Below are positions 9,941 to 46,085 of a DNA stretch of 64,000 nucleotides, piece by piece (positions within the stretch are counted from its first letter, which is position 1; each line of letters starts with the position of its first letter). The position numbers and the translations under genes are program-made. The notes under the pieces were generated by a model, which had not been told where the DNA came from, did no database searches, and saw only the letters and a list, made by a program, of their open reading frames with translations. Source of the DNA: Arenicola marina (taxonomy: Eukaryota > Annelida > Polychaeta > Arenicolidae); assembly GCA_964019135.1 (NCBI GenBank), contig OZ025252.1:45172959-45236958 (forward strand), written 5' to 3'.

Positions 9941-9954
9941 TCACCGGTGATCGA

Positions 9955-21900: not shown

Positions 21901-22740
21901 CGCGCCATCTAGCGTGTCCGTGCTCCGCGCATGCTCGTTGGCGATAATCCTGGGCGAGTCGGTCCCCTGGCCGAGAGCCAGTTTTAAATAGTCCCCATAG
22001 CAGTCGTCGTCCTCGGCGCACCTCGCGGCGTGGCCGGAACAGTCCCGCGGCGGGGTCTGCAGCTTCACGTAGTCCCCACACTCCTCACCAGGCGGCGCAT
22101 CCGTCGCCATGGCCTTGCCCTTCCCCAAGACTCGCTGTTTGTGCAGGTAGAGAACGTTTGAGTAGAAGTCTTTCGCCGACATATAGTCGGCATCGCTGCT
22201 GGGGGTCGTCCCCCGTCGCGCCTCCTCGGGGGTCCGCCCGATGGGGTAGGCGGCGCCCGGGGACAGAGGCGCGGCCCGGGAGCCCTGGCCGCTCGGCACG
22301 GACATCTGACCCGGCAGGGACCCGGGGGCCGAGGCCTGCTTCCGGAAGCGCTGCCGCAGCTCCTCCGCCATGCGCACTGAGTCCATCCGGTTGACCTCGG
22401 TTGCGATTCGGAAACTCTCCGGTTTCCTCATTCCGTACGTCGCCAGATTCCGGGGAGACCGCGCCGGAAACACGTGTTCGCTCTTAGGCGTCTCCCTGGA
22501 GAGGAGTCGCTCCAGGGCGGCCGTGTCAAAGGTCAAGGCCGATAGACCGCGCCGCTGCAGCGAGCGACTTAGTTGGCGCGCACGCGCACTGGCGTCGTCG
22601 TGGGCGGCGACCTGTGCGCGCACCCAGGCTGGGCTGGCCAGACAGCCGAGCGAACGGCTGTGGGTACGCGTCCGGCCCAGCCGGCCACCCATGTGCAGTG
22701 CATTCTGGGATAGGGCGGGACTCTCGCTGCTGTCTCGCTC
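18958..22740 (-). CDS. PLEKHG: PLEKHG last coding exon (exon 13), long disordered tail
   Basis: Acceptor TTCACTCAG precedes 22740 in phase 0. The exon encodes 1260 residues to the stop and has no introns. It is rich in Ser, Pro, Gly and Arg, with a polyglycine stretch and basic patches ([20 protein letters not shown], a likely short conserved helix). Near the end are two helical segments of the type PLEKHG1/3 carry in their tails: [20 protein letters not shown] and [20 protein letters not shown]. The protein ends EGVDSQC. GC content is extreme, so many overlapping antisense open frames exist and are ignored. Full tail function is not predictable; in this family tails carry phosphorylation and actin-binding sites. 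Confidence 0.92.
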   Translation of the reverse strand, partial: ERDSSESPALSQNALHMGGRLGRTRTHSRSLGCLASPAWVRAQVAAHDDASARARQLSRSLQRRGLSALTFDTAALERLLSRETPKSEHVFPARSPRNLATYGMRKPESFRIATEVNRMDSVRMAEELRQRFRKQASAPGSLPGQMSVPSGQGSRAAPLSPGAAYPIGRTPEEARRGTTPSSDADYMSAKDFYSNVLYLHKQRVLGKGKAMATDAPPGEECGDYVKLQTPPRDCSGHAARCAEDDDCYGDYLKLALGQGTDSPRIIANEHARSTDTLDGAGVSPSPMWDLGGSQLFSGSRNSKASSGVYDNWRVGQCDDVTTMAAADGDISAGSSPSKQATRAGRASAAAALMGDLGASLSSLTAIQSYVTDATPAVRDSTYVGGARPLHQRVKGPSDSIPTCDHQNPWVPRAEPPCCLPRHLYDPKEVIMRPDAGGDRKPKVKRSSKLVKSQSFNSEDDLLDELSGSPADGGRNRSGKGHRRRVSETAVFSNRTAFLASAASATSPVKIRLDPELQRRLARLATPPRDLGPEMLLQEIARCRERGKVVSRYATPPRSLMESPSEAEGWAAGATVLANSLHSDLLDTGRGGLPGGSPGGCGSSGVVGGCHGGKAGVGSASCSSPPPLAPPPCGSPAAAEAVWSDLEDYLKATSPDEDEGGGGGGSGRGRGTTPRFPQPVSPSDPSSPCSPGPPGLFIQRPGSFHGTTVHSTSCAASTQRPRPSTSPAPGESIVDSLKHALHSLTSKLRLRSPGTPRGGAAAATRSLETSPTRPTIRARSAEDMYRVCHLDNHPHTPEAASRGDKLKDKKQRLVKQIARVYSDRVRSKHRPWIGKRSKSRDGERDRDRDRDESPQCRRQGSMKAELRDLLKENQQGGQSVGARMATTKPVVLGAYTLTRHRPARPQPPTPTHDPPEASCHPHPRPSSPIQTVTHAVIEAAQEEDMNCEQAEVEAEVLPEPPGGGTVVMECDEEAASSALRRLNGSHPGGMSPALHRGGRDVSGSELRNSPRYLDHFMNPKAVKTADESNADFFYEDRLVKDLERSSMGSLRIRLDSPRDNPSGSAAGDPDTASGVDTDPSPFLKMSIRETVRLIEQRCRAKQVSRLEVKRKEKARGIQEILKTLEAQSGSPACPGSPIRLDQQQRVDPLSGSGTPVAAGSLTPVTPESPVPLKSIRERTRELVECATLTRIRQNSYSIDPEYKTPSGDERDGRGDAGADDGEGHIPEAISPTRRGYVREIIEMIQGVMSVHQPLEGVDSQC

Positions 22741-25700
22741 CTGAGTGAAGCAAACACATTTATAAAGTGAAGGTTTGGTACCAGTGCTATCCAAATGTAG
22801 CCAAAAATAAAAACATATTCAAAAGACGGTCATTATCCTATTCCATGTAATAATGCTACATGCGACAGTCACAAGTAATTTGGATTTGATTTTGTTAACG
22901 GCTCATTTATCATCTCGCGTACCGAATACTGCATACATTAAGTTTAACAATACAAAGAACCTTTTTGTAAATTACGGACCTTTTTCTTAGTTGAATGGTT
23001 ACCAACATAGTATCACTCCTACAGTCACTCGATGTCACCCATTATCGCTCATCTTCTTCCCACCCTTCAGGTCCGTCTACTTGACCTTCGTTATCACCGC
23101 TTTATCGTAGCCAGGGAAAAACATGTCACCACCACCCCCGCCCTCCCCAGCCGTAATTCCAATACGAGACACAACCTTCCTTCCACTTCCGGTCGGTTAC
23201 CTGAGAGCTTCTAGAGCTGCTGCCGCGCTCGTCTGTCTCCAGAATGCCGTCCCCGGATTGGCGGGGTGTGTCCGGACAGGGCGTCTGGAAGGCCGTCATG
23301 TCCGACCTGCGTCTCAACCGGGGCGACTGCAGCGAGAGAGGGGACCAGCTTGAGTACGGAAACCAGGCACCAGCCACGGCACGGGAACCAGGCAACAGCC
23401 ATGGGAGTCAGACACCCGCCATGGCACGGAAACCAGGCACCAGCCATGGGGGTTAGGCACCAGCCATGACACGGGAGCCAGGCACCAGCCATGGGAGTCA
23501 GGCACCAGCCATGGCACGGGAACCAGGCACCAGCCAAGGCACGGGAACCAGGCACCAGCCATCAGGCACTAGCCATGGCACGTGAACCAGGCACCAGCCA
23601 TGGGAGTCAGGCACCAGCCAAGGCACGTGAACCAGGCACCAGCCATGGGAGTCAGGCACCAGCCATGGCACGGGAACCAGGCACCAGCCATGGCACGGGA
23701 ACCAGGCACCAGCCATGGGAGTCAGGCACCAGCCACGGCACGGGAACCGGGCACCTGCCATGGGCGTCAGGTATCAGCCAAGGCACGTGAACCAGGCACC
23801 AGCCATGGGCGTCAGGTACCAGCCATGGCAGGGGAACCAGGCACCAGCCATGGCACGTGAACCAGGCACCAGCCATGGCACGTGAACCAGGCACCAGCCA
23901 TGGCACGTGAACCAGGCACCAGCCATGGCACGGGAACCAGGCACCAGCCATGGGAGTCAAGCACAAGCCACGGCACGGGAACCAGGCACCAGCCATGGGA
24001 GTCAGGCACTAGCCATGGCACGGGAACCAGGCACCAGCCATGGGAGTCAGGCACCAGCCATGGGAGTCAGGCACTAGCAATGGCACGTGAACCAGGCACC
24101 AGCCATGGGAGTCAGGCACCAGCCATGGCACGGGAACCAGGCACCAGCCATGGCACGTGAACCAGGCACCAGCCATGGGAGTCAAGCACCAGCCATGGCA
24201 CGGGAACCAGGCACCTGCCATGGGCGTCAGGTACCAGCCATAGCACGGGAACCAGGCACCAGCCATGGCAGTCAGGCACCAGTTACGGCACGGGAACCAG
24301 GCACTAGCCATGGCACGGGAACCAGGCACTAGCCATGGCACGGGAACCAGGCACCAGCCATGGGCGTCAGGTACCAGCCATAGCACGGGAACCAGGCACT
24401 AGCCATGGCACGGGAACCAGGCACCAGCCATGGCACGGGAACCAGGCACTAGCCATGGCACGGGAACCAGGCACCAGCCATGGCACGGGAACCAGGCACC
24501 AGCCATTGGAGTCAGGCACTAGCCATGGCACGGGAACCAGGCACCAGCCATGGGAGTCAAGCACCAGCCACGGCACGGGAACCAGGCACCAGCCATGGGA
24601 GTCAGGCACTAGCCATGGCACGGGAACCAGGCACCAGCCATGGGAGTCAGGCACCAGCCATGGGAGTCAGGCACCAGCCATGGCACGGAAACCAGGCACC
24701 AGCCATGGCACGTGAACCAGGCACCAGCCATGGGAGTCAAGCACCAGCCATGGCACGGGAACCAGGCACCAGCCATGGCACGTGAACCAGGCACCAGCCA
24801 TGGGAGTCAAGCACCAGCCATGGCACGGGAACCAGGCACCTGCCATGGGCGTCAGGTACCAGCCATAGCACGGGAACCAGGCACCAGCCATGGCAGTCAG
24901 GCACCAGTTACGGCACGGGAACCAAGCACTAGCCATGGCACGGGAACCAGGCACTAGCCATGGCACGGGAACCAGGCACCAGCCATGGCACGGGAACCAG
25001 GCACCAGCCATGGCACGGGTAATATGCGTAATAATATGTAATCTGTGACATGATATCGAGGAATATGTCGTATCATGATAAATCAATGTAATACATCAAA
25101 ATAAATGAGACAAAATAAAACAAATACAAAATATTAGATATAAGCTACTGGCACAGTTACATGTTCTGACACAAAAAGGTAACAATTCTATTATAAATCT
25201 ATGTATTGAGTCGTTTATGTACAGCATTCTGGCCTGATTGCATTTGAGATAAACATTTGCACGACCAATGATCCCAAAGATCTCTATACAACTCACCGAC
25301 TTAGGACTGCTATTTACTAGTCCAGCTTCACTCTGTAGGGGAAAGGTACAAGAACAATATAACACAGGCAAAATGGACTCCATAGTTCGAGAGGACATAG
25401 CATATTGCAGTGACATGAAGGACACCGAATCAGGAGGGACATCATTCCTTATACATTTCTAACCAATTAACGTCATCATAATGTGCATTTATAATCAATT
25501 AACATCATCTGATTGTACATTCCTAATCAATCAACATTCGATTTCGTCACAAGAAAGCATTACCTTGCGTTGCGCTCGCTTTGATTTCAAGAGTGCGAAA
25601 TCTGTAATAAAACAAGATGGAAATGCGGTTGAAATATAACGATATATCAATCCAGTTGGGAGACGTATAAATAAAGCATTCATATTTGTATTATTTATCT

Positions 25701-28700
25701 ATTAGCTACATATTGTAATGTTGTAATATATGTTCGTGTTCCTGAGAGGAGCGTGAGAGATGTGAGCACTGACCGGGGATGAGGCTAGCGAGACGTGAGC
25801 ACTGACCGGGGATGAAGCTAGCGAGACGTGAGCACTGACCGGGGATGAAGCTAGCGAGACGTGAGCACTGACCGGGGATGAGGCTAGCGAGACGTGAGCA
25901 CTGACCGGGGATGAAGCTAGCGAGACGTGAGCACTGACCGGGGATGAGGCTAGCGAGACGTGAGCACTGACCGGGGATGAAGCTAGCGAGACGTGAGCAC
26001 TGACCGGGGATGAAGCTAGCGAGACGTGAGCACTGACCGGGGATAAAGCTAGCGAGACGTGAGCACTGACCGGGGATGAAGCTAGCGAGACGTGAGCACT
26101 GACCGGGGATGAAGCTAGCGAGACGTGAGCACTGACCGGGGATGAAGCTAGCGAGACGTGAGCACTGACCGGGGATGAAGCTAGCGAGACGTGAGCACTG
26201 ACCGGGGATGAAGCTAGCGAGACGTGAGCACTGACCGGGGATGAAGCTAGCGAGACGTGAGCACTGACCGGGGATGAAGCTGGCAGACTTGCGGCGGCCT
26301 CTCCGCTTCTCCAGGTATTCCGGGGCGGTGTGCTGCTTCTTGGCCGTGTCACCAGCCGGCTCAGCCTGGTTCTCCTCGTAATCTAGGCCAAGGTGGGCGG
26401 TGTACTTATAGTAAATACCACTGATCACCCTGCTCCATAAGACTTTTGCCTAACTGTTCCCGACTTCTTCCCCCGCTCGGCCCGACAACTCCCCCACTGT
26501 TCCCGACTACCCCCATCCCCGCTCTTCACGACTACTCCACCCGCTTTTCCCAACCACTATTGTCGCTCTTCCAGACCACTCCCCCGCCTTTCCCAACCGC
26601 TACCCTCGCTCTTCCTGAAAGCTCCCCCCCGGATCTCCCGACTACTCCCCTCGCTCCTCCTGATCACTCACCCCGCTCTTCCCGATCACTCCCCCCGCTC
26701 TTCCCGACTACTCCGCCGCTCTTCCAGACTACTCCCCCCGCTATTCCCGACCACTCCCCCCGCTCTTCCCGAATACTCCCTCCGCTCTTCCCGACCACTT
26801 CCACCGCTCCTCCCGACTGCTCCCCCCGCTCTTCCCGATCACTCTCCCCGCTCTTCCCGACCACTCCCCCCGCTCTTCTCGACCACTCCCCCCGCTCTTC
26901 CAGACCACTCCCCCGGCTCTTCCCGACTACTCCCCCCGCTCTTCCCGACTACCCCCCCCCGCTATTTTCGACCACTTCCCCCGCTCTTCCCAAATACTCC
27001 CTCCGCTCTTCCCGACCACTTCCCCCGCTCCTCCCGAATACTCCCTCCGCTCTTCCCGACTGCTCCCCCCGCTCTTCCCGATCACTCCCCCCGCTCTTCC
27101 CGACCACTCCCCCCGCTCTTCTCGACCACTCCCCCCGCTCTTCCAGACCACTCCCCCGGCTCTTCCCGACTACTCCCCCCGCTCTTCTCGACCACTCCCC
27201 CCGCTCTTCACGACTACTCCCCCCGCTCTTCCCGACCACTCCCCCGCTCTTCCCGACCACTAACCCCGCTCTTCACGACTACTCCCCCCGCTCTTCCCGA
27301 CCACTCTCCCGCTCTTCCCGACCACTCCCCCCGCTCTTCCCGACTACTCCCCCCGCTCTTCTCGACCACTCCCCCCGCTCTTCACGACTACTCCCCCCGC
27401 TCTTCCCGACCACTCCCCCGCTCTTTCCGACCACTAACCCCGCTCTTCACGACTACTCCCCCCGCTCTTCCCGACCACTCTCCCGCTCTTCCCGACCACT
27501 CCCCCCGCTCTTCCCGACTACTCCCCCGACCACTCACCCTGCTCCTCCCGACTCTTGCCCAGCATCATGACGAGCTGCTTGGCCTTGGCCGGGATGTTGG
27601 CGCTGTAGTTGTCCAGGATCAGCCGCTTGAGCTCCTGACACCAGCGCCGCTTCTGCTCCAGGGTCCGGGCCTGTCACAGGGAATACAATGGTGTGTGTTA
27701 TAGCGGCTTCTGCTCCAGGGTCCGGGCCTGTCACAGGGAATACAATGGTGTGTGTTATAGCGGCTTCTGTTCCAGGGTCCGGGCCTGTCACAGGGAATAC
27801 AATGGTGTGTGTTATAGTGGCTTCTGCTCCACGGTCCGGGCCTGTCACAGGGAATACAATGGTGTGTGTTATAGTGGCTTCTGCTCCAGGGTCCGGGCCT
27901 GTCACAGGGAATACAATGGTGTGTGTTATAGCGGCTTCTGCTCCAGGGTCCGGGCCTGTCACAGGGAATACAATGGTGTGGTTTAGGCGGTTTCTGCTCC
28001 AGGGTCCGGGCCTGTCACAGGAACATATAATGGTGTGTGTTATAGCGGCTTCTGCTCCAGGGTCCGGGCCTGTCACAGGGAATACAATGGTGTGGTTTAG
28101 GCGGTTTCTGCTCCAGGGTCCGGGCCTGTCACAGGGACATACAATGGTGTGTGTTTTAGCGGCTTCTGCTCCAGGGTCCGGGCCTGTCACAGGGACATAC
28201 AATGGTGTGTGTTATAGCGGCTTCTGCTCCAGGGTCCGGGCCTGTCACAGGGACATACAATGGTGTGTGTTATAGCGGCTTCTGCTCCAGGGTCCGGGCC
28301 TGTCACAGGGAATACAATGGTGTGGTTTAGGCGGTTTCTGCTCCAGGGTCCGGGCCTGTCACAGGGACATACAATGGTGTGTGTTTTAGCGGCTTCTGCT
28401 CCAGGGTCCGGGCCTGTCACAGGGACATACAATGGTGTGTGTTATAGCGGCTTCTGCTCCAGGGTCCGGGCCTGTCACAGGGACATACAATGGTGTGTGT
28501 TATAGCGGCTTCTGCTCCAGGGTCCGGGCCTGTCACAGGGAATACAATGGTGTGGTTTAGGCGGTTTCTGCTCCAGGGTCCGGGCCTGTCACAGGGACAT
28601 ACAATGGTGTGTGTTATAGCGGCTTCTGCTCCAGGGTCCGGGCCTGTCACAGGGACATACAATGGTGTGTGTTATAGCGGCTTCTGCTCAAAACAAGGCT

Positions 28701-31700
28701 AAATTGGGCCCCAAAAACCTCCCGGGACACTAACTAGGGGCTTGGGTGAAACATATATTGCACGAGAAAACAGAGTACAGCATGGACTATGAGCTATACC
28801 GACATGGCCATTCACAGCATTGTACATGCGGTAGGCCCCTCTCACCGTTAACATACAGCCAGTCACCTTTCAATCCGGGCGGGCAATGCTAGGGACGGTG
28901 TATTCATACATACATGGCACTCTCCCTGGCGGAACTACTTTCGCGGACTACACTCACAGCCTGATGACCACGTGGCCGGCCCGCGTCCTACCTGTACAGT
29001 GTACTGCATCCTGGGATTGTTGAAGGGGATCACGTGGAAGCTGAGCGGCTCTTTGGGAATGCTCTCTATCAGCATCAAGTTGGAGCACTGAAAACACACA
29101 AACAACTAACTCAGCTCACCTCTTCAGAAGGGACTTTATCCGCCTTAGGTCCCTACATTACTACGTCAATGCCCACAGTATTAAGTAGGCTCTGCCTATA
29201 ATATGTTATATTACATGCTATGTTATGTTACGTGTCCTCATAAAAAGTGGAAGGTTTAAGTAAAATGTCTCAACCTATGTATGTCATATCGCGACAAAGG
29301 GAAGGGTCAAGGCGGAGGGGGCCGGGGGTAACCCCATACTCTTTGCGGGACATGGAATCTTTATCCTGCCTTAGCACAGGTGGGGCTCGAACCACGCACC
29401 GGCCGCTTGGGCCCACCTAGCAGTTATCACGCATAACCTAATAATGCTTATATTGCGGTATTCGAAAATGTAGAAAATCAGACTATTGTTTCCTTCACAG
29501 AGTTGTTTTGAGTTGGATGGCATTAAGAATCCTGCGAGGGTGCTCCGGACTGACCCTGATGGAGGCCTTGGCCATGAGAGTCCCGTCCTCCTTCTTCTTG
29601 GCGATCAGGATCCCCTTCTCAAACAGCAGCAGCTGCCGCCCGCCCTTGGCGCCGTACATCCGGAAGGTATCCTGGAAAACAATAGCCACGTCTTAGACAG
29701 GGAACCTCGGGCATATCACGGGGCAGTGACCGGGCAAGTGACTCGGCCAGTGACCAGGGCAGTGACTAGGGCAGTGACCAGGCCAGTGACCAGGCCAGTG
29801 ACTAGGGCAGTGACCAGGCCAGTGACCAGGCCAGTGACCGGGCCAGTGACTATGGCAGTGACCAGGCCAGTGACCAGGCCAGTGACTCGGCCAGTGACCA
29901 GGGCAGTGACCAGGCCAGTGACTAGGGCAGTGACCAGGCCAGTGACCAGGCCAGTGACTAGGGCAGTGACCAGGCCAGTGACCAGGCCAGTGACTCGGCC
30001 AGTGACCAGGGCAGTGACTAGGGCAGGGACCAGGGCAGTGACTAGGGCAGTGACCAGGCCAGTGACCAGGCCAGTGACCAGGCCAGTGACTAGGCCAGTG
30101 ACCAGGCCAGTGACCAGGCCAGTGACTAGGCCAGTGACCAGGCCAGTGACTAGGCCAGTGACCAGGCCAGTGACTAGGCCAGTGACCAGGCCAGTGACTA
30201 GGCCAGTGACCAGGCCAGTGACTAGGCCAGTGACCAGGCCAGTGACCAGGCCAGTGACTAGGGCAGGGACCAGGCCAGTGACCAGGCCAGTGACTAGGGC
30301 AGTGACCAGGCCAGTGACCAGGCCAGTGACCAGGGCAGTGACCAGGCCAGTGACCAGGCCAGTGACCAGGCCAGTGACTAGGGCAGTGACCAGGCCAGTG
30401 ACCAGGCCAGTGACCAGGGCAGTGACCAGGCCAGTGACCAGGCCAGTGACTAGGGCAGGGACTAGGGCAGTGACCAGGCCAGTGACCAGGCCAGTGACTA
30501 GGGCAGTGACTAGGGCAGTGACCAGGCCAGTGACCAGGCCAGTGACCAGGCCAGTGACCAGGCCAGTGACCAGGCCAGTGACCAGGCCAGTGACTAGGGC
30601 AGTGACTAGGGCAGTGACCAGGCCAGTGATCGGGCCAGTAAGCGGACCAGTGACTAGGGCAGTGACCAGGCCAGTGACTAGGGCAGTGACTAGGGCAGTG
30701 ACTCGGGCAATGACTAGGGCAGTGACCAGGCCAGTGAGCGGGCCAGTGACTAGGGTAGTGACCAGGCCAGTGACTAGGGCAGTGACTAGGGCAGTGACTC
30801 GGGCAATGACTAGGGCAGTGACCAGGCCAGTGAGCGGGCCAGTGACTAGGGTAGTGACCAGGCCAGTGACTCGGGCAGTGACTAGGCCAGTGACCAGGGC
30901 AGTGACCAGGCCAGTGACCAGGCCAGTGACTAGGGCAGGGACTAGGGCAGTGACCAGGCCAGTGACCAGGCCAGTGACTAGGGCAGTGACTAGGGCAGTG
31001 ACCAGGCCAGTGACCAGGCCAGTGACCAGGCCAGTGACCAGGCCAGTGACCAGGCCAGTGACCAGGCCAGTGACTAGGGCAGTGACTAGGGCAGTGACCA
31101 GGCCAGTGATCGGGCCAGTAAGCGGGCCAGTGACTAGGGCAGTGACCAGGCCAGTGACTAGGGCAGTGACTAGGGCAGTGACTCGGGCAATGACTAGGGC
31201 AGTGACCAGGCCAGTGAGCGGGCCAGTGACTAGGGTAGTGACCAGGCCAGTGACTCGGGCAGTGACTAGGGCAGTGACCAGGCCAGTGACCAGGCCAGTG
31301 ACCAGGCCAGTGACTAGGGCAGGGACCAGGCCAGTGACCAGGCCAGTGACTAGGGTAGTGACCAGGCCAGTGACTCGGGCAGTGACTAGGGCAGTGACCA
31401 GGCCAGTGACCAGGCCAGTGACCAGGCCAGTGACTCGGGCAGTGACTAGGGCAGTGACCAGGCCAGTGACCAGTGCAGTGACTAGGGCAGTGACCAGGCC
31501 AGTGACCAGGGCAGTGACTAGGGCAGTGACCAGGCCAGTGACCAGGGCAGTGACTAGGGCAGTGACCAGGCCAGTGACCCGGCCAGTGACTAGGGCAGTG
31601 ACCAGGCCAGTGACTAGGGCAGTGACCAGGCCAGTGACTAGGGCAGTGACCAGGCCAGTGACTAGGGTAATGACCAGGCCAGTGACTAGGGTAGTGACCC

Positions 31701-34700
31701 AAACAATCTTGTTCCTATAGTGATTATATCCCATAACATCCCCTTAAGCATGACTACCGACCTCACCTTAGAGTCTCACTCTAAAACATCTGAATTTTCT
31801 AATGTGAACGAATTCGCTTTAATGGCCCCAAAAAACTTATATAATAGGTGCAATACAAGAAATAAACATACGGAGACTCCAATTAACACCTGATAGTTCG
31901 CAATCATGGCAACAATGCTTATTGTTAAGCAAATAAACAAATCAGGATTAACCACCCCAGGATTATCTCCCAGGAGTCCTGCTCCGCCCACCTCCAGGAT
32001 CAGGTCGCCATAGGTGGTGAGGTCGTCGCCGTCCCAGCCGTACAGGATGCTCTGGATCTCCTGGATCCGGAAGCGGTGTTCGTGCTTCCGCTTCATCTCG
32101 TTGATGTGGTCCGCCATCTTGGTCATGGAGTCCAGGGCCGTCTGGATCACCTCCAGTCCGGAGCGGGCCTTGTCGTAGTTGTTCATGATGTTCTGGAGAT
32201 AAGTGCAATGATCTGGGGGTTTGAGGCCGCTCGTGTGTACCTAAGGGCTTTAAATCACTCATTGAGCCGGAGTGAACTCCCTGGTGATAAACTGTTAGAA
32301 TGGTTTGACTGTTCGACTGTTCAGCCACGTCTGGTACGTCACCAGCAATCGGGCAACGCAGCGGTTTTTTGCCTCTTTAAATAAAGTAACTTATCTATTT
32401 CGTCAACATTCACACTGTCAGATACTGTGTCCAAGACATTTCTCCGTAAGAATTTGAAGATCATACTGAAAGTGGAATTTTTTTTAAGAAGCAGCTTGCA
32501 ATTAGCAAAGAATTTTCAGGAGACGATGAAGGATAAGAGAACGAAACCTGTCCCGCAAACCCATTTGCTAACTCTCACCAGGTATAGAAAACTTCCGAGT
32601 TTTTATCACCCATGTTGCCACATAACACTGTTTCCATAGCGTTTCCCATTACCGGCGGGAAACGAACTGGAGCTTTTCTCACATATAATGAGCGATATTA
32701 TGGGTTGGGAGGGGGAATTGCCATTACCTGCAGGAGGAGGTGCTACTTATAATGAGCGATATTATGGGTTGGGAGGGGGAGATTGCCATTACCTGCAGGA
32801 GGAGGTGGTACTTGAGGATCCGCTGCACGGGTTTGAGGAGATAGGACCCCAGCGGCAGCCCGTGCTGCAGCGCCATCTGTTGACTCTTCAGCGCATCGGC
32901 CAGAACCGGGTTCCTCATCCACTGAGTTAACACGTCCACAGCCCTGCAACCATGACAACCAGACGCTGGGTGTTACATTCCCACGACAGTGTGTCCCGGG
33001 TGCGCGGTGAGAACAGAATATCACATGGCAGAGGCACGTATTGAAAAAAACAGTCCTTTTCCTTGTTTTGTGGGGGTAAAAAGAGCGCTTCACGTCATAA
33101 GTGTTTTACACCAAAGGGCGGCTCTTTAGAGAAACATGGACGATGTTCATTCCAGGTGTAAGAGTTTTATGCAGGAGAAAAACAATTAGGATGTTTCACT
33201 GGGATAGAGCAGCGGCCACCGCTGTATAACGATTCCAGATATACGTGTCAAATGTTTTACTGTGTACACGGTGGGAAGCCCAGTAGAGCGTCTGGAGTCT
33301 GTCTGGAGGTGGCAGCACCCCATGTTAAAGCAGCCTACTTACATGCGCCATCTTAGATTTTTTACATTTTAGAATCAAGACTAGAAGTATCTCAAAATTG
33401 TGATGCATTTAAATTTTATATCTCGTTGAGTCTGTAAAACAACAATTTCAACATAACACTGCGCGGGCTAGTTTACGCGCGCGGACGTCCTAGCGAGTCG
33501 CGGTCGACATCACACAGAATACCGAACAGCGAAAAGGCGCGCAGGATTATAAAGCCGGCCACCAACGTCTGCTCCGGTGAACAAATTTGCTTCTCTGCGG
33601 ATAGCCCACAGGCTTTCAGGATTTAAATTCAAGACAGAATATACTTATTTGACATGGAGATCGGTAATATAAAAATTACAGAACATACTGATTTAACCCT
33701 TTGACGTTCATCATAATGCACCAATGTAGGAGACAACGGACTCAGCCAAGTGAACATGTGAAACATTCACATACATCTTGCTGCCCATTGAAAGTATCGT
33801 GCATAATTACCAAGTGACAGAACTATTTTCATAATCAGAATAACCAAGCGATCTGGGGACAAAATGTCAAACAATGAATAGCCATGCGTGGGCGACAATC
33901 GGCGAGAATCGGCGAGAACTTACCCCGGATAGTTGGTGCAGTAGTCGGTGTAGATGAGGAAGCCCTGATTCTTGTCGACGAAGCACTGAGCCAGGCGGAC
34001 TGGGTCAGAGTCTGCGCTCTGCAGGAACTCCAGGAAACAGCTGTAAGGAGGGGACATGGGCAATGTTAAACCAGGAAACAGCTGTAAGGAGCGGACATGG
34101 GCACTGTTAAACCAGGAAACAGCTGTAAGGAGGGGACATGGGCACTGTTAAACCAGGGAACAGCTGTAAAGAGGGGGCATGGGCACTGTTAAACCAGGAA
34201 ACAGCTGTAAGGAGGGGACATGGGCACTGTTAAACCAGGGAACAGCTGTAAAGAGGGGGCATGGGCAATGTTAAACCAGGAAACAGCTGTAAGGAGGGGG
34301 CATAGGCACTATTAAACCAGAAAACAGCTGTAAGGAGGGGGCATAGGCACTATTAAACCAGAAAACAGCTGTAAGGAGGGGGCATGGGGGCTGTTCATCT
34401 AGGAAACAGCTGTAAGAATGGAGCATGTGGAACTATTAATTCCGGAATTAGCTGATAGGAAGATTCATTAGCAACTGTTTGCAGGAGGGAAGAGGGTAAC
34501 GTTGGAAAAGGGAGGAGTGCCGTCCAAGAACGGTGGTGCGGGAAGAATGAGGGCGGCATCAGAAAGTGACGCTAGCGTGGGAATAGAAGGAGCGGTGTCT
34601 GAAAGGGGAGGATGGTTCGGAAAAGGCAGGGGGGCGCCGGAAAATGGAGGGTGGGGCCGGGCAAAGTCAGGGTGGCGCAGGGAAGGACGGTGGCGCGGTG

Positions 34701-37700
34701 GGAGAGAGGGTGGTGTTGGGCAAAGTGAGGGTGGCGCAGGGAAGGACGGTGGCGCGGTGGGAGAGAGTGTGGTGGTGGGCAAGGTGAGGGTGGCGCGGTG
34801 GGAGAGAGTGTGGTGCTGGGCAAGGTGAGGGTGGCGCAGGGAAGGACGGTGGCGCGGTGGGAGAGAGTGTGGTGGTGGGCAAGGTGAGGGTGGCGCGGTG
34901 GGAGAGAGTGTGGTGCTGGGCAAGGTGAGGGTGGCGCAGGGAAGGACGGTGGCGCGGTGGGAGAGAGTGTGGTGGTGGGCAAAGTGAGGGTGGCGCAGTG
35001 GGGGAGAGGGTGGTGCTGGGCAAGGTGAGGGTGGCGCAGAGAAGGACGGTGGCGCGGTGGGAGAGAGTGTGGTGCTGGGCAAAGTGAGGGTGGCGCAGTG
35101 GGGGAGAGGGTGGTGCTGGGCAAGGTGAGGGTGGCGCAGAGAAGGACGGTGGCGCGGTGGGAGAGAGTGTGGTGCTGGGCAAAGTGATGATGGCGTGGGG
35201 AAGGACGGTGGCGCGGTGGGAGAGAAGGTGGTGTTGGGCAAAGTGAGGGTGGCGCAGAGAAGGACGGTGGCGCGGTGGGAGAGAGGGTGGTGCTGGGCAA
35301 AGTGAGGGTGGCGCAGAGAAGGACGGTGGCGCGGTGGGAGAGAGTGTGGTGCTTGGCAAAGTGATGATGGCGTGGGGAAGGACGGTGGCGCGGTGGGGGA
35401 GAGGGTGGTGCTGGGCAAAGTGAGGGTGGCGCAGAGAAGGACGGTGGCGCGGTGGGAGAGAGTGTGGTGCTGGGCAAAGTGATGATGGCGTGGGGAAGGA
35501 CGGTGGCGCGGTGGGAGAGAAGGTGGTGTTGGGCAAAGTGAGGGTGGCGTGGGGAAGGACGGTGGCGCGGTGGGGGAGAGGGTGGTGCTGGGCAAAGTGA
35601 GGGTGACGCAGGGAAGGACGGTGGCGCGGTGGGAGCGAGTGTGGTGCTGGGCAAAGTGAGGGTGGCGCAGGGAGGGACGCGGGCGCGGTGGGAGAGAAGG
35701 TGGTGTTGGGCAAAGTGAGGGTGGCGTGGGGAAGGACGGTGGCGCGGTGGGAGAGAGGGTGGTGCTGGACAAAGTCAGGGTGGCGTGGGGACGGGAGGGT
35801 GGCGAGGGGGCGGGAGGGTGGCGCGGTGAGACAGAGAGAGTGGTGTCGGAAGGAGAGGGCCAAGCACGGTCGTTATAGATCCTTAAAACGAGCATGTGTC
35901 TGTGATCCATCTACAGCAGCAGTGTTTGCCAAGCTGGTGACTCATCTGCTGGCAAATCCCAGCCACAATTACGTAATGTTTACTCTCTCTCTCTCTAGTG
36001 TCGTGATCCACGCAAGTCTCGGTGACGGCGAGATCTCGTGCAGTGGTCACAGCTACGTGGTCCATCACTATCACTGACGATTAACAAGGCATAGATCTAC
36101 GTTGCTCAAGCGACAGTTGTGTTCACACTGTAAAGTCCCACCCTGCATGGAGCGAAACGTGTGAACTTTGGATCACAAACACACACACATTGTAACCCTT
36201 CGCAATGAGGGCAGCGCACACGTCGTACTATCTAGGTGTAGTTGGTTGCATCCTCTAACTTTAGAGCACCCAGATTACAGAGAGCACGGCGACATGATCT
36301 TTCCGATCGATACAATTCACACTCAATACTGATGTCTATATTGAGGATCAACGGGAAACAAAAACAGTGATCGGTACTGCTCCATAAAGGTTGTCAATAC
36401 CTGATGATTTTCACAATAGTTTTAAAGGGAAATGCCGGGCCAATATCATTTACATTTCCAGTTAAACTATAGGGAATTAACTAAACATTACATAGAATAT
36501 ATATTATTTTAATCATACATTAGTGAAGTTCCAAGCACTTTTGCCCGACCACCATGGGTACCGCCTCAGTGCACTGATAACGATAATGACTAACTCGCCG
36601 GCGATGAAGCGACCAGTAGGTTTAGACGACTACTACCACCGGAAGCTATAATAATTTCTGGCGAGTCGGACCAAGAAGTTGACTATTTATTTTCCTTAAT
36701 GTGATAAAAAATGTGGCATTAATGTGGCAGAACTAATATATATATTGTAACTAACAGCGCCACCTATGAAGGAGAACATTCCGAACGCCAACCACTCCAG
36801 GTTAACCTGTTATGAGTGACGAGCAGGCAGCTTGATCTACCACCTCCTCCACCCCTCCACCCCCGCCCCCCCCCCCACCCGCGCACCCCCTCCCTCCACC
36901 CCCGGACCCCCTCCCTCCACCCCCGGACCCCTCTCCCACCCCTGTTTGTTATCGTTACACCCTGGCAGCCACAGGACTGTCAAGCGTTACTGTCTCATCC
37001 CTGTCGCTTTAACACGTTTGATAGTCAGTCTCAGCGAAACTCCTTCACTCCTGACCTACAGTGCATAAAGCTTGGCAGTAACCAGAGATTATGTAAGCTA
37101 CGCCATCTCTGATGTAACTAGAACATAATACGCTTGTAAGGTCGACCAGCTTACAACAGCTTCATCAAGTTCGCATCGTCTACTAATGTTACGTACTAAT
37201 GCATTCTGTGCTAGATTCTAGGCTCTCACTCGGCCAGAATTCGGTGCTAGATTCTAGGCTCTCACTCGGCCAGAATTCGGTGCTAGATTCTAGGCTCTTA
37301 ATGGGCCAGTATTCGGTGCTAGATTCTAGGCTCTCACTCGGCCAGAATTCGGTGCTAGATTCTAGGCTCTTAATGGGCCAGTATTCGGTGCTAGATTCTA
37401 GGCTCTCACTCGGCCAGAATTCGGTGCTAGATTCTAGGCTCTCACTCGGCCAGAATTCGGTGCTAGATTCTAGGCTCTTAATGGGCCAGTATTCGGTGCT
37501 AGATTCTAGGCTCTCACTCGGCCAGAATTCGGTGCTAGATTCTAGGCTCTCACTGGGCCAGAAATCGGTGCTAGATTCTAGGCCCTCACTGGGCCAACAT
37601 TCTGTGTTAGATTAAAAGCCTCTAATATGTCGCGAAATGTCCTAGGCACTCATATGGCCAGTATCCTGTGCTAGATGCTAGGCATTTTAACAAGTCACAA

Positions 37701-40700
37701 CTAGTTATGCAATGCTAGGATCTCACACGGTTCTCATCATATCGTAGTTTTACATTTAGTCTCCGTATTCCGTACACACACAGACAGACAGACTGATAAG
37801 GCGTCAGTAATAAGCACAAAAACAGCGGCACAGAGCTTGACGAGGGCCATCATGCAGCCAGACTCCCGCTTTACGAGCGGTCGTTTTGCGCGTTGGCTCC
37901 GTGTGTACGAGGTGTGGCAACGGGGAGCTGAGAGTGCACCGGTTTTATGCCCAGATTCTCAACTTGCTGCATCAAATCCAGACTGAGGGATGAGATGCTA
38001 GGACAGCAACGGGCGACTCGCCCCTAAAACGGCTGGACGTTCAAAGACAGGCGTCACCCCGTCTGCCAGGCCCTCACCGGGCGAGGGCGAGGGCGAGGGT
38101 GGGGTCGGGGGACGGGGGCAGAAGGTTGCGTTATCTTATGGTTAGAGTTTGAAAGTGAAAGACGGAATGTCTTGCCGAATGTTCTCCCAGGCGATTTTTG
38201 CGGAACTCACGGTGGGATCTGCGAGCGTCGTCTGCTTACAGAGCGTCGTCTGCCTTAGCATCGTCTGCTTACAGAGCGTCACCTGCCTTAGCATCGTCTG
38301 CTTACAGAGTGTCACCTGCTTTAGCATCGTCTGCTTACAGAGAGTCACCTGCTTTAGCATCGTCTGCTTACAGAGAGTCACCTGCTTTAGCATCGTCTGC
38401 TTACAGAGTGTCGCCTGATCTAGTGTCGTCTGCTTACAGAGCGTCGTCAGCCTTAGCATCGTCTGCTTACAGAGTGTCACCTGCTTTAGCATCGTCTGCT
38501 TACAGAGTGTCACCTGCTTTAGCATCGTCTGCTTACAGAGAGTCACCTGCTTTAGCATCGTCTGCTTACAGAGTGTCACCTGCTTTAGCATCGTCTGCTT
38601 ACAGAGAGTCACCTGCTTTAGCATCGTCTGCTTACAGAGTGTCGCCTGATCTAGTGTCGTCTGCTTACAGAGCGTCGTCTGCTTAGAGTGCCGTCTGCTT
38701 ACAGAGCGTCGTCTGACCTAGTGTCGTCTGCTTACAGGGTGTCGTCTGACCTAATGTCGTCTGCTTACAGAGTGTCGTCTGCTTAGAGTGCCGTCTGCTT
38801 ACAGAGCGTCGTCTGACCTAGTGTCGTCTGCTTACAGGGTGTCGTCTGGTTACATAGCGTTGTCTGCTTACAGTGCGTCGTCTGCTTACAGAGCGTCGTC
38901 TGACCTAGTGTCGTCTGCTTACAGAGCGTCGTCTGACCTAGTGTCGTCTGCGTACAGGGCGTCGTCTGCTTACAGAGCGTCGTCTGCTTACAGAGCGTCG
39001 TCTGCTTACAGAGCATCGTCTGCTTACACAGCTTCGTCTGACCTAGTGTCGTCTGCTTACAGGGCGTCGTCTGCTTACAGAGCATCGTCTGACCTAGTGT
39101 CGTCTGCTTACAGGTTATCGTCTGCTTACAGAGCATCGTCTGCTTACAGAGCTTCGTTTGACCTAGTGTCGTCTGCAGAGCTTGCAGGGCGTTCGCCGCC
39201 TGCGTAGAGAGTCTGCTCAGGCTTTATCCCACACTAGTGGCAAGCCGTGACTCTTAACAAAGCGGCAGTAAGTGGAGGGATTTACCGCGTCTCCGGCACA
39301 TTTCGGACTGCGTATGGGAAGGTCTTGTGGGTGGGCGGGTTGGAACAAAACACCATGCTGCTGATGTATGTCAGAGATAGCCAGCCTGGTGTTCGCGGGG
39401 AACACAAGGCCTGCTTTGTGGACCACATTACAAGCCGCGTCCTCCCAAACTCTCCCCTCAAGAGAGGCATTGTCTAAGAGTCTTAGGCGCTCGGCTTTGT
39501 CCTGAACGGCATGACGCACGGTGTGCCTCAGTCTTGGTGTCTATCTTCCCTAGAGTCACGCCAGTGTCAGGACTGGCGAATAGAGACTTCTAACTTTGAC
39601 CCTATGCGTCGCCACACTAGTCCTAATGCAGCTTAGTCCGATGAACCTCCAGAATCAAACCTATTCCCATTCTTGTATAAAATTAAATATAATGAGATTG
39701 TGTTTTGCGCACATAATGGCTAAACTGGGCCTCCAGGAACGATGAACGATATGACTGGATGGTCGGTGGGTTGTCTATTCAGGACGCTTTAACCACTTTT
39801 GGTCATATCGCGTCAAAGGGAGAAGGAAGGGAGAGTGGAGCCATGTCACCGGGTTAACCCCCTATTCTTTGCGAAGAAAGACATAGGATCTTTATCCTGC
39901 GACCATGGCCACAGCGGGGCTCGAAACACCGATCCACGTGCCGTTAGGCTCTCAGGTGACCAGCTATGACTGGTTGAAATACGCCCCAGGTTTGGCGCCT
40001 GGGCCTGCATTCGAACCCAGGACCAAGCAGACCGCCATAATTGCTTTTGGTACGCGCGGATATCAAGCTATGTTTACCATTATAGGTCTATGACGGCCAG
40101 ACAACGAGTAGGTGTCAACACCCAAACAGTGACCCATAATCATCGCGTTGCCATGAGAGCATCAACCAGAAAGCGTTACCATTGGAAACCTGAAATAAGC
40201 GTTGCCCCGCTGGCCAAGTGTGTTGCGCGCTAAAGCCGTAACGCATGTTTGCCCATTGGACCACGCACCCCGTGATCAAATAAACATGCTGCCAGGCCTA
40301 ATCCCCTGTCCTATCCGGGGTGCTTTCATAGTGTTAGCAAAGAAAACTAACAACTTGGCCCCGCCAACCTCATTTCACTAATACCCGCTTGACAACTGAT
40401 CTTGAAGCTGTTGACTAAAGAGGGTACACTTTAATTAATCTGTCAGAGTATATCTCGTGTACGGAGGGGATCTAGGAGTCAGGGCCACGTTTACCCGGGG
40501 AATTGACCGATCCAGGCCGCCAATCATTCATTGACGTCACTGTTGCTTTTATCCAATCGTGTGGCGAAAAAAAGGTCTTTCACGTGCGTTATGTCCGACA
40601 AAAAAGTCCGACAAACAAAGCAGCAGGTCACTTTCTGGTCAGTGAGTACGCTTCGCGCGGGGTTTTGGCCTCTTACCTGTTGAAATCGTGGATGTCGACA

Positions 40701-43700
40701 ATGTTGCCGAAGAGAGTGTCTACCTCAGTCTGAACCAGATGCAGCTCCCCCTGGCGACTGCTGATGAAGACAAGGTAGCCCTGAAACACAAACATAAGAC
40801 ACGGTCTTTAGATTGAGTTAAAAAGAATAGCAGGGGTTAATACGGGATCAAGGACATGATTGAACAACTGACGAGGGTCTCACACTACTAACTCAGGCAT
40901 GATTGAATAACTGACGAGGGTCTCACACTACTAACTCAGACACTATGTGTCCTTCGGAATGAATCATGCATTCTACTAACCATATTTTACATCCAGAAAG
41001 TGTCATTATCTTGTACTAACTCAAGACAGGATTTAGCTGTTGGAGTGGATTACGCATTCTACTAAAAGAATATCTGACCTTCAGAAGGGGTCATTATGCT
41101 GAGACATTGTTTAAACTTGTGAACATTCAGAATGGGTCACACTCTACTGAGGCACTTTTTAAGAAAGGGTCAGGCATTCTACCGAACACTCTCGTGTTCT
41201 TTACAACGGATAAAAACGATACTGAAAATTTACATAAATTCTTTTGAAGAGATGTCACGTCTTCCAACTGGAACACTAATCTCTGAGACAGATCCAGACC
41301 CCCGACGGACCCAGTCAACCCAGGGCCACACCCCGTCCCCTTACCTTCTACCCCCACCCCTCCCCTTACCCCAGCCCCCCACCCCTCTCATTACTCCCGC
41401 CCTCACCCCTCCCCTCCCCATACCCCTCAACCCCGGTCCCTCATACATCATTGGGACTTGGGAGAATTAAAACTCCGGAAGCTGCTATCTCGGAACTGCC
41501 ATTCATCACGTCAGTCGAGACATCGTTACCATGGTTACGGGGACAGAGCGCAAATCGCCGCAGCAAATTGTCTGGAACGACATCAGAGGCCAGGAGCCGG
41601 AGGCCAGGAGCCGGAGGCCAGGAGCCGGAGGCCAGGAGCCGGAGGCCAGCATTCCGGTGGGATCCCGACTGAGCAGGACGTCCGGGATCCCGAACAGCAC
41701 GTCCGGGAGACACGCGCTCCGGACAAAACTGCCCTGGATCCCACAGACTGACGGCCAGACACAGCTGGATCCAGATGCCACGAGATTTAATGACGGCGGG
41801 GGGTGTGGGGGCTGGGGTGAAGGGGGGGGGGGAGTAGATATACTTAGTACCACCCACCCACCATCCGGCGACGGAAATAGTTTTTTTTAATTACGTCACA
41901 CTCGTTATAGTTAGCCTCCCCCCCCGAACTCTTTCCTTAATATATAGGGCTGGCACTACCCCCTTCCACCAGCAGTATATTGAGAGGTAAGGAGGGGAGG
42001 GGAGGGGGATAGCTATGGCAGCTGTCATGACGAGGTGCAGTAACCCCCACCCCTCCCCCGGGTAAACAAGACTAACACCGTGGTGAGCGCTCAATAGTTC
42101 AGTGAGCGCGAGGCAATAACCATGAGAGGCGCCTATCAGAGGTCATACACAAGGTCAAATAATTGAGTCGCTGGCGAAGCGTGCCACGAACGCGTTCGCT
42201 ATGGGGAAAGAAGTACCGGTAATTACATTACGAGCCTCATCTGCCAACCGCTGGCGTGTTATTAGGGCGGGTGGAGTGCTGCTTCAGGGGGATCTAAACG
42301 CATCTATGCATAGTATATGTCGGCAAAACGGGACCAGAGAACCGCCGGCTTTTAGGGTGGTAAGTGGGGCCATTCGGATGCCAGAGATTGGGTATCGGTT
42401 ACCCGACTGAAATCATTACTTCAACGCCCGGTAGGGAACCAGACAAGTGTGTTGTACATGATGAGGCACTGACTGATATCGGTCATCAGTTGAAGGGAAA
42501 GCTATATTGTTCAGCGACTCTTTGGAAACAAGGGCGAGCCATATATTTGGGTAACCGTGATGTATGAGTCAAAGCGACCTATAACCACCAGAACACACAC
42601 CTGTACAAATGGGAATCGAACCTCAACCTTAACGAGGCTCATCGCAAAATTCTTTCTGTTACGTAGTTCAGTGGGACATAGCCTTATAAATTTTACTGAA
42701 TATGTAGGTCAGTGGGGCGGTTCCTAATATTATTGAATATGTAGGTCAGTGGGGTGATTCCTAATATTATGGAATATGTAGGTCAGTGGGGTGATTCCTA
42801 ATATTATGGAATATGTAGGTCAGTGGGGCGGTTCCTAATATCATTGAATATGTAGGTCAGTGGGGTGATTCCTAATATTATGGAATATGTAGGTCAGTGG
42901 GGTGATTCCTAATATTATGGAATATGTAGGTCAGTGGGGCGGTTCCTAATATCATTGAATATGTAGGTCAGTGGGGTGATTCCTAATATTATGGAATACG
43001 TAAGTCAGTGGAGTGATTCCTAATATTATTGAATATGTAGGTCAGTGGGGTGACTCCTAATATTATCGAATATGTAGGTCAGTGGGACGATTCCTAATAT
43101 TATGGAATATGTAGGTCAGTGGGACGATTCCTAATATTATGGAATATGTAGGTCAGTGGGACGATTCCTAATATTATGGAATATGTAGGTCAGTGGGACG
43201 ATTCCTAATATTATGGAATATGTAGGTCAGTGGGGCGGTTCTTATGTAGGTGAGTGAGCCGATCATTACATTGAAACCCAGTGGGTAACTGCTCCTGATT
43301 AGAGAAGTCAGTGCCTGGAGACAGTTATTATAAGCAATACCTACATTACATCCGGATCGCTCACCTTGATGATATCCTGAAGGTCGTGCACGTACGTCCG
43401 CTCGGTCTCCAGGATTTCGGCGACCACCCGATCCAGATACGAGGCTCCGGGCATGTCAAACAGGAAGCGGGGCTGGGGCGGCGGGGAGTGGGGGGAGAAG
43501 GCGCAGGCAACCCCCGGAGACGGCATGTCGGTGGGGTCGCCGGCTCGGAGGTCCGCCCGCCTGATGGCCGGGCTGGGGCTGGGACTGGGGCTGTCCCCCC
43601 CCGGGATGTCCACGTGGAGGGCGCCGCGGGGGGTCACACATCCGCCGATCCCCGGGCGCGGTCCGGCCCCAACCACCACCACCCCCACCCTCTCCCTAGT

Positions 43701-44584: not shown

Positions 44585-46085
44585 CTGGAATCAAGAGGAC
44601 AGAGAAATATAATGACAGGTTCCCTTTAACTAAAAGTCACTCAACCACGTGCAAGGATCGGTGTCGGCATCACTACTGGAACATAAATTTTGTGTAAATA
44701 ACTTATTCATCCATAAATCATATTTGGTCTCGGTAATATGTATGTGTGTACAGTGGCCATATTGGAGAGCCTGACAGAACCCGGAGAACGCCGACCAGTG
44801 CCCCCACCCCCCCCCCCCCCCCGCTTCCCATGAGACCGGCACCACACAGAGCGACACCATGGCACCACACAGAGCGACACCATGGCACCACATAGACCGA
44901 CACCATGGCACCACACAGCCAGGCCCCAGCCAGGCCTACATGTCGTAATAGCGAGTCGCCCCCCACCCCCCCGGCCGCCCCAGCGGCATGGAATCAGCTG
45001 TCAGCCTCCCGATGCCAATCGGTCGCCATGTGGACAGCCCCCCCCCCCCACACGGTTCACGGGTTGGGGGATGTATCGGGAGGGGGGGGGGGGGGTGTAG
45101 GGCACGCGTGTCGACAGTCGGCGAGCAGCTGATCACCATCCCCTGTGTGCACCAGGAAGGAAGGGGGAACGCGCGGGTAATTATGCCGCTTGGCATGGAT
45201 ATCGAGCAGGGGGAAGCCCGTGGTGGGGGTGGGGGGGGGGGGTGACGATGAGGGTGTTGTCAAGCTTAAAACAATGGTTCCCCCCAGCACATTACACATC
45301 GCCCAGCGGCAGTCTCCACACATCACATCCCCACCATGACCCCCCCCCCCCCACCCCCAATCCACGTACCCCCGCCTCTCTCCTGCCCCTCCTCCACATC
45401 CACCTACCGCCCGACCCAGCCGGCGGAGTATAACGTTATATTAGAGAGCCATAGAGGGCGAACTCGCCGGGTGTGTGTGTGGGGAGTGGGGGGGGGAGGG
45501 GGTGAGAGAGGGTGTGGAACTGTGAAGGAGGGGAGCAAACCGCTGATGACGAGGACCGGGGGAGTCATAGCGCCGGTGTGAGGGTGCCGAGACCCTCCCC
45601 ACCCCTCCCAGCCTCCATTCCCTGCCACCCTCCTCCCCCCACTACACCCTACACGGAGCTCTCTGTCTGGTCTGGGAGGGAGGCTCACGGCACATAATAG
45701 TGGTGAGTGCTGTGTCTGGGGGGAGGTGGGGGGACTGAGCTGGCGGCGGGCTCGGGTGGGGTGGTGGAGGAGGGAGTGGGACTGGGTGCAGGGGAAGCGA
45801 GACTCATCTCGGGGACTCATCACTGGGCGGCCTGTGACACAGGGACAGCGACGGGCGGGACAACATCGGCGGGTGGGGGGGGGGGGGAGGCAGGGGGGAG
45901 AAACAGAACGAGGACAGCGAAGGGAGTGGGAGGCGAGGGGCTGGGGAGGGGTAGGGGAAAGAGGTGACTGAACGTGGCGGTGGATGGCGAAAATGTGGCA
46001 CCGTCCAGCCATGTATCAGTAAGAATATCGTAACTACCCAGGGTTTATATACAGACTTGTCCCCCGAGGCCTGTGTCGCCGTCCG
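44585..46085. other. GC-rich upstream region of PLEKHG with long poly-C and poly-G tracts
   Basis: The acceptor at 44585 implies at least one upstream leader exon, which I cannot place. The stretch has many C or G runs of 8-18 bases (near 44806, 45041, 45083, 45228, 45343, 45480, 45880). It also has a 20-bp triplicate at 44842-44910 (CACCACACAGAGCGACACCA). Open frames here follow base composition. Confidence 0.5.

What the first reader, a model, noticed from the sequence alone, without database searches (positions are those of the whole stretch)
22741..43364. Introns of one gene each carry a private tandem array, five built on their own splice site
Of 12 PLEKHG introns, 1, 2, 5, 7, 8, 9 and 11 contain large arrays and 4 a two-copy duplication. 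Units differ between introns (12, 22, 25/20, 33, 33/18, 36, 37, 41, 57, 60 bp). Introns 2, 4, 7, 8 and 9 use sequence crossing an exon border. Repeated independent birth at splice junctions points to a mechanism, such as replication slippage or repair at paused or R-looped exon edges. From memory, junction-containing intronic minisatellites named 'mirages' were reported in amphioxus; I cannot check that here.
Basis: partly seen in the sequence, partly recalled or inferred. Interest (0 to 1): 0.85.

Follow-up and report, generated by a model that had tools for sequence, protein, structure and literature searches.

The report
Minisatellites copying their own splice sites
In one gene of a segmented worm, five blocks of repeated DNA are built from copies of the gene's own exon edges, a pattern first described in the chordate amphioxus; it also occurs in other genes of the same genome and looks more like a by-product of a genome full of repeats than of a process aimed at splice sites.

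Summary
Confirmed. The gene is a PLEKHG-like RhoGEF on the minus strand with 13 exons and consistent phases. Five of its 24 exon borders lie inside a tandem array or duplication: acceptors of exons 3 and 8, donors of exons 4, 8 and 9. Arrays cover 52% of its introns. The known counterpart is the amphioxus 'mirage' (PMC3087553, PMC3902484), but mitochondrial gene order places this genome in annelids. In 31 other stretches of the genome, 10 of 70 donors and 2 of 66 acceptors are spanned too, so the pattern is widespread. A birth hotspot at splice sites is not well supported: acceptors show no excess; donors show about a twofold excess (P 0.007 without the window gene) that fades for young copies (6 of 70, 4.3 expected, P 0.25). 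Best reading: local tandem duplication strikes anywhere in a repeat-saturated genome (28% of 20 sampled stretches), and copies crossing a junction survive because the exon-adjacent site still works. New member of a known kind; no report outside cephalochordates and recent human paralogs turned up in the library searched.

The parts
34030..34439 (-). 41-bp array (10 copies) spanning the exon 3 acceptor (exon starts at 34040); exon part about 11-12 bp
   Evidence: TRF; junction window 27/30 copied; 9 of 9 inner copies keep AG
32686..32815 (-). two-copy 65-bp duplication spanning the exon 4 donor (exon ends at 32793); exon part about 23 bp; outer limits approximate
   Evidence: 28/30 copied at shift 65; copy keeps GT; not reported by TRF
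27649..28689 (-). 57/58-bp array (about 18 copies) spanning the exon 8 acceptor (exon starts at 27670); exon part 22-29 bp
   Evidence: TRF; 30/30 copied; 17 of 17 inner copies keep AG
26457..27560 (-). 22-bp array (about 49 copies by TRF, 26457-27527) continuing into the tail of exon 8 across its donor (exon ends at 27538)
   Evidence: TRF; 25/30 copied; 3 of 30 inner copies keep GT
26417..26450 (-). degenerate copy of the exon 8 tail at the far end of intron 8, holding about ten more exon bases than the 22-bp unit
   Evidence: alignment score 17; 0 of 2000 shuffles reached it (highest 14); 11 other intron tails score 4-8
25757..26288 (-). 33-bp array (16 copies) spanning the exon 9 donor (exon ends at 26269); exon part 17-20 bp; stop-free in the frame of exon 9
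   Evidence: TRF; 29/30 copied; 15 of 15 inner copies keep GT; frame seen
42698..43241 (-). intron 1 array, 37 bp, 14.7 copies, not at a junction
38223..39176 (-). intron 2 array, 33/18 bp
37203..37613 (-). intron 2 array, 36 bp, 11.4 copies
34647..35821 (-). intron 2 array, 59 bp with inner 20/23-bp periodicity
29724..31699 (-). intron 5 array, 12-bp motif read by TRF as 36/48 bp; ends 52 bp from the exon 6 acceptor
23356..25019 (-). intron 11 array, 25/20 (45) bp; ends 29 bp from the exon 12 acceptor
18958..44636 (-). host gene, PLEKHG-like RhoGEF; exon ends E1 43365 (5' end undetermined), E2 40780-40677, E3 34040-33924, E4 32943-32793, E5 32192-31992, E6 29671-29555, E7 29087-28992, E8 27670-27538, E9 26382-26269, E10 25601-25564, E11 25332-25297, E12 23326-23201, E13 22740-18958
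   Evidence: phases consistent, GT/AG at all 12 introns; Pfam RhoGEF and PH; DH-PH structures

Best explanation
These are mirage-type minisatellites in an annelid. Short tandem duplications arise anywhere in this repeat-saturated genome and expand, each private to its place. When a founder duplication happens to straddle an exon edge, the gene survives because the copy next to the exon keeps working: the 5'-most donor or the 3'-most acceptor defines the shortest exon, and the inner copies leave with the intron. Coding selection then holds the exonic half of that copy still, so such duplications stay recognisable longer than purely intronic ones, which gives an apparent excess at donors. Acceptor cases are rarer because an upstream copy of an acceptor can be met first after the branch point unless the unit is long enough to carry its own branch region. 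Shown: the anatomy, private units (five tested), occurrence in other genes, repeat saturation, no rule that unit length be a multiple of three. Inferred: tolerance by exon definition, the persistence effect and the branch-point argument.
For: Arrays cover 28% of twenty 10-kb stretches, three of them 82-100%, and 52% of this gene's introns. In 136 junctions outside this gene 12 are spanned (10 of 70 donors, 2 of 66 acceptors). Acceptors are at expectation: 4 of 78 against 4.2, 2 of 66 against 3.5 without the window gene. The donor excess fades with younger copies. Windows 50-60 bp inside exons are duplicated in 0 of 236 cases, so exonic births are purged, while introns 90 bp and further in show 18-29%. 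Donors exceed acceptors, 13/82 against 4/78, Fisher P 0.039; 10/70 against 2/66, P 0.031 without the window gene. Acceptor units are 41, 42, 57 and 124 bp; four of 13 donor units are under 40 bp. 5 of 17 units are multiples of three, near the third expected by chance. A far-end copy in intron 8 keeps extra exon sequence, as birth from exon DNA predicts.
Against: At the loosest identity threshold donors are spanned more than uniform seeding predicts even without the window gene (10 of 70 against 4.4, P 0.007; P 0.005-0.038 over six settings). A plausible persistence factor of 1.33 leaves P 0.034, and only a factor of 2 removes it (P 0.19). An earlier event count gave no significant excess (12 against 8.5, P 0.11), so the result depends on how fragments are merged. 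No transcript data, so use of the outermost site is inferred from reading frame alone.
Confidence: 0.68

Rival explanations
1. Exon edges, donors above all, are true birth hotspots of tandem duplication, through paused replication, R-loops or repair at the exon border.
For: Donor excess 13 of 82 against 5.2 expected, P 0.0007; 10 of 70 against 4.75, P 0.012 without the window gene. Exon-proximal array edges peak in the last 25 bp of the exon at donors: 9 in that bin against 4 per bin in the first 100 bp of intron. Within the window gene 5 against 1.08, P 0.002.
Against: No excess at acceptors. The excess is smallest for the youngest copies (6 of 70 against 4.3, P 0.25; with the window gene 8 of 82 against 4.8, P 0.09). 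The first event count gave P 0.11.
Confidence: 0.18
2. The arrays are functional: inner splice-site copies are used to make repeat-bearing protein isoforms or to regulate splicing.
For: Most inner copies keep AG or GT; the 33-bp array at exon 9 and the 42-bp array at an OSBP-like exon (L029) are multiples of three and open in frame.
Against: Unit lengths ignore the reading frame (5 of 17 multiples of three); 27 of 30 inner copies at the exon 8 donor have lost GT.
Confidence: 0.07
3. The arrays are copies of a mobile or dispersed repeat family, or an assembly artefact.
For: Arrays are common in this genome.
Against: Five tested units have no close relatives elsewhere; the exonic part of each junction unit is that gene's own coding sequence; copies within arrays differ from one another; the pattern recurs in unrelated genes. 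Raw reads were not available.
Confidence: 0.04

Closest known systems
Amphioxus 'mirages' (Adh3, TnC, globins BflGb6 and BflGb9, PGBD5); PMC3087553 and PMC3902484, passages read
   Same: Tandem duplications whose unit crosses an exon-intron border, at donors and acceptors, splice signals kept in many copies; reported not to disturb splicing; mechanism described as unclear; other loci suspected.
   Different: Annelid instead of cephalochordate; units here 22-141 bp at junctions (the papers give 10-72 bp for Adh3, 60 and 108 bp for PGBD5, 150-160 bp for globins); up to 24 inner copies; measured here over 160 junctions. Copy-number polymorphism, somatic instability and RT-PCR known there, untested here.
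Internal tandem repeats at exon-intron boundaries of recent human paralogs; PMC2812944, passages read
   Same: Minisatellites (mean unit 30 bp) crossing exon-intron boundaries.
   Different: Recent paralogs in segmental duplications, often with repeats kept in transcripts and new introns formed; here the gene model reads through outermost sites only.
Intron gain by tandem genomic duplication; seen as search listing and abstract starts only (e.g. PMC4974935, PMC2891723)
   Same: Tandem duplication of sequence holding splice signals.
   Different: Here the junction exists already; the joined exon 8 copies read an in-frame stop (sequence), so intron 8 is not shown to be a gain.
Earthworm metallothionein intron minisatellites; PMC12783039, passages read
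   Same: Large minisatellite arrays in an annelid intron; duplications of exon 4 absent from the transcript.
   Different: No junction-spanning unit in the passages read; mean monomer about 180 bp.

Membership tests
Mirage (amphioxus-type splice-junction minisatellite) | Tandem unit includes an exon-intron border | tested here: met
   5 of 24 borders in this gene; 12 of 136 elsewhere
Mirage (amphioxus-type splice-junction minisatellite) | Authentic outermost copy keeps an intact gene structure | tested here: met
   13 exons, consistent phases, GT/AG throughout
Mirage (amphioxus-type splice-junction minisatellite) | Normal mRNA despite the copies | not testable with these tools
   no transcripts held
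Mirage (amphioxus-type splice-junction minisatellite) | Copy number differs between haplotypes or somatic cells | not testable with these tools
   one assembly only
Mirage (amphioxus-type splice-junction minisatellite) | Found in cephalochordates (where described so far; not a structural criterion) | tested here: not met
   mitochondrial gene order is that of annelids (against PMC2639372 and PMC4866719); gene names and order read by me from translations; GFP search empty but without positive control
Dispersed or mobile repeat family | Same unit at many unrelated loci | tested here: not met
   five units searched: 32 of 35 matches at their own array; remaining units not searched
Intron gain by tandem duplication | Removing the intron restores a continuous ancestral exon | tested here: not met
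   intron 8 only: joined copies read into an in-frame stop (by eye on the sequence); other introns not examined

The most novel reading that the evidence does not exclude
5' splice sites in this annelid are genuine mutational hotspots for tandem duplication (donors two- to three-fold over intron background, acceptors not), so a transcription- or splicing-coupled process seeds minisatellites at the exon-to-intron transition.
Probability: 0.18. Interest if true: 0.75.

Novelty: new member of a known kind. Interest (0 to 1): 0.48.

Why it matters
It carries the mirage phenomenon from chordates to annelids and gives it a rate: 17 of 160 sampled splice junctions are tandemly copied, up to 24 times with intact splice sites. 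Two questions become testable in one genome: how the spliceosome picks one of ten to twenty-five near-identical sites, and whether donor-spanning duplications are born more often or only last longer. It also warns annotators: introns made of stop-free arrays read as long open frames, and multiplied splice sites can mislead gene predictors.

Tried and rejected
Amphioxus as source: rejected on mitochondrial gene order (against PMC2639372). Naming the species by paper search: nothing useful. Intron 8 as a newly gained intron: not supported, the joined copies read an in-frame stop (sequence). Microhomology at founder duplications: 38 two-copy duplications found, 24 clean; most did not form a full-length tandem pair, so nothing could be concluded. 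Coverage at the junction as a test: dropped as the main measure because array length biases it. First event count: fragments of one duplication counted separately and multiples of the period used; replaced, and its result is reported.

Selection of junctions. RhoGEF search: 27 matches; 8 were cut out as loci and one more fetched later (L050); L003 gave no usable edge, leaving 8 stretches. Myosin-head search: 77 matches; 18 stretches fetched, covering 45 of them. Sampled 10-kb stretches: 20 fetched, 8 run through a home-made gene finder, 4 used (L013, L017, L021, L029); L010, L012, L014, L022 and doubtful exons in L017 and L021 were dropped because I could not recognise the protein or the edge. 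Uncertain single edges were dropped in L002, L003, L029, L033, L039 and L050. Edges were chosen by simple splice-site scores, by eye and by phase; none has transcript support. One donor (L049) is GC and was kept. The spanning copy in L004 is weak (24/30, GT not kept) and was counted. Names PLEKHG, OSBP, INTS11, peroxiredoxin and golgin are my recognition of translations (recalled), as are the mitochondrial gene names other than COX1 and tRNA-Val; RhoGEF, PH, EHD, myosin head and COX1 come from calls.
Full report
WHAT IS THERE. The window lies on a 49.9-Mb contig (C5) of an 867-Mb genome in 762 contigs. The gene on the minus strand is a PLEKHG-like RhoGEF (the family name is my recognition; the domains are from calls): 13 exons, 12 introns, phases consistent, GT/AG at all 12 introns, Pfam RhoGEF 7.7e-41 and SOS1/NGEF-like PH 7.2e-12, DH-PH structures as best PDB matches. 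The 5' end of exon 1 is not determined. TRF arrays cover 10,164 of 19,391 intron bases; inside exons they cover 11 bp of exon 3, 22 bp of exon 8, 20 bp of exon 9 and 77 bp of the long last exon.

THE JUNCTION ARRAYS. A 30-base window centred on each border was compared with its surroundings. Five of the 24 borders have a local copy of at least 24 of 30 bases: exon 3 acceptor 27, exon 4 donor 28, exon 8 acceptor 30, exon 8 donor 25, exon 9 donor 29. Of their inner copies 9 of 9, 1 of 1, 17 of 17, 3 of 30 and 15 of 15 keep AG or GT. Intron 8 ends, near the exon 9 acceptor, in a degenerate copy of the exon 8 tail that holds about ten more exon bases than the 22-bp unit (score 17; none of 2000 shuffles reached it; 11 other intron tails score 4-8). 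This supports birth from exon sequence. Five units used as a genome-wide query matched 35 places, 32 at their own array; the others were not searched.

WHICH ORGANISM. The mitochondrial contig (15,942 bp) has its protein genes on one strand in the order cox1-cox2-atp8-cox3-nad6-cob-atp6-noncoding-nad5-nad4L-nad4-(rRNA)-trnV-(rRNA)-nad1-nad3-nad2 (COX1, tRNA-Val from ARAGORN, the rest named by me from translations and position). PMC2639372 (passages) gives as annelid traits nad6/cob after cox3, atp6 between cob and nad5, nad5 and nad4L/nad4 interchanged, and nad3 between nad1 and nad2; all four hold. It also puts the main non-coding region between atp6 and nad5 in Clitellata, Maldanidae and Terebellidae, as here. 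PMC4866719 (passages) gives one protein-gene order for most Pleistoannelida. The species was not identified. A GFP search found nothing, but nothing rang in its controls either, so it proves little.

HOW COMMON IS IT. Twenty 10-kb stretches at round coordinates have 28% of their bases in arrays of period 7 or more; three of them are 82-100% array. I curated splice junctions in other genes from RhoGEF and myosin-head exon matches, from four sampled stretches with recognisable proteins and from an EHD gene in the window: 136 junctions in 31 stretches. With this gene that makes 160, 82 donors and 78 acceptors. Spanned: 13 of 82 donors and 4 of 78 acceptors; without the window gene 10 of 70 and 2 of 66. 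A second RhoGEF (L005) has 24 inner copies of a 61-bp unit; one myosin gene (L032) has two donor arrays with 9 and 11 inner copies; an OSBP-like gene (L029) has a 42-bp acceptor array with 11 inner copies. The window gene is not significantly richer than the rest (5/24 against 12/136, P 0.14).

IS THE JUNCTION A HOTSPOT. Plain coverage says no: at the border 12 of 64 donor and 3 of 62 acceptor windows are duplicated, from 90 bp into the intron 18-29%, and 50-60 bp inside exons 0 of 236 (first list of 126 junctions). Coverage is biased by array length, so I collapsed each array to one unit and asked whether founders straddle junctions more than intronic points. The first count, which took fragments separately, gave donors 12 against 8.5 expected (P 0.11) and acceptors 3 against 6.1. 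After merging fragments of one event and using the smallest period: 12 against 4.2 (P 0.0002) and 3 against 3.4. With 160 junctions: donors 13 against 5.2 (P 0.0007), acceptors 4 against 4.2; without the window gene 10 against 4.75 (P 0.012) and 2 against 3.5. Over six settings donor P ran from 0.0003 to 0.0034 with the window gene and from 0.005 to 0.038 without it. Exon-proximal array edges at donors show 9 in the last 25 exon bases, 4 in the 25 before, and 4 per 25-bp bin over the first 100 intron bases.

AGE OF THE EXCESS. Requiring 24, 26 or 28 identical bases of 30: without the window gene 10, 8 and 6 of 70 donors (P 0.007, 0.037, 0.25); with it 13, 11 and 8 of 82 (P 0.0004, 0.008, 0.09). 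Acceptors never exceed expectation (4, 4 and 2 of 78). Intronic pseudo-junctions are spanned at 3-5% (all). The excess therefore sits mainly in older duplications. That is what persistence predicts: selection holds the exonic half of one copy still, while an intronic pair drifts on both sides. A persistence factor of 1.33 leaves P 0.034 and a factor of 2 gives 0.19 (without the window gene), so persistence alone may or may not suffice, and with 6-8 young cases a modest hotspot stays possible. The P values treat arrays as independent and the thresholds were chosen by me.

WHY THE GENE SURVIVES. The copy next to the exon keeps the frame: the first donor, the last acceptor. Choosing the shortest exon, as exon definition does, gives the right mRNA in both cases (inference). 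Acceptors are spanned less often than donors (4/78 against 13/82, P 0.039; 2/66 against 10/70, P 0.031), and their units are 41, 42, 57 and 124 bp, while four of 13 donor units are under 40 bp. A short acceptor unit would put an extra AG between branch point and true acceptor (general splicing knowledge, not tested). 5 of 17 unit lengths are multiples of three, which suggests that inner copies are not used much.

COMPARISON. Tandem copies of exon-intron boundaries called mirages are described in amphioxus Adh3, TnC, globin and PGBD5 genes, with the mechanism called unclear and a proposed role in intron gain (PMC3087553, PMC3902484, passages). Boundary-crossing minisatellites also occur in recent human paralogs (PMC2812944, passages). 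An earthworm gene has intronic minisatellites (PMC12783039, passages). My searches for the pattern elsewhere listed no further report; these were word searches of an open-licence library in which most subscription papers are missing, so this does not show that none is in print.

VERDICT. It is a new member of a known kind, in another phylum and widespread in its genome. A junction-targeted mechanism is at most weakly supported.

Noticed in passing
window 9106-13037: Two adjoining arrays, a 26-bp one (32 copies) and a 32/59/91-bp nested one of about 3 kb with long stop-free frames on the minus strand.
   Followed up: no
window 54654-58612: A 31-bp array of about 127 copies at 93% match, the largest in the window.
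   Followed up: no
L037 (G000:C4:380000-384900): A myosin gene with four similar neighbouring exons covering the same part of the motor domain (model about 110-154), which look like mutually exclusive alternatives.
   Followed up: no
L032 (G000:C7:32806700-32814500): Several myosin exons are reported inside one open frame of 1401 codons that runs through introns: stop-free introns could be taken for coding sequence.
   Followed up: no
L023, L028 and L015: Sampled 10-kb stretches that are 100%, 100% and 82% tandem array (54-bp, 31-bp and 16-bp/9-bp units).
   Followed up: no
G000:C1:7037733-7037892: Weak relatives (82-84%) of the intron 1 37-bp unit, themselves in tandem, the only non-local match of the five units tested.
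   Followed up: no
L029:1919-2581: A 42-bp array at the acceptor of an OSBP-like exon that is in frame and stop-free, so upstream acceptors would add 14-residue repeats.
   Followed up: partly
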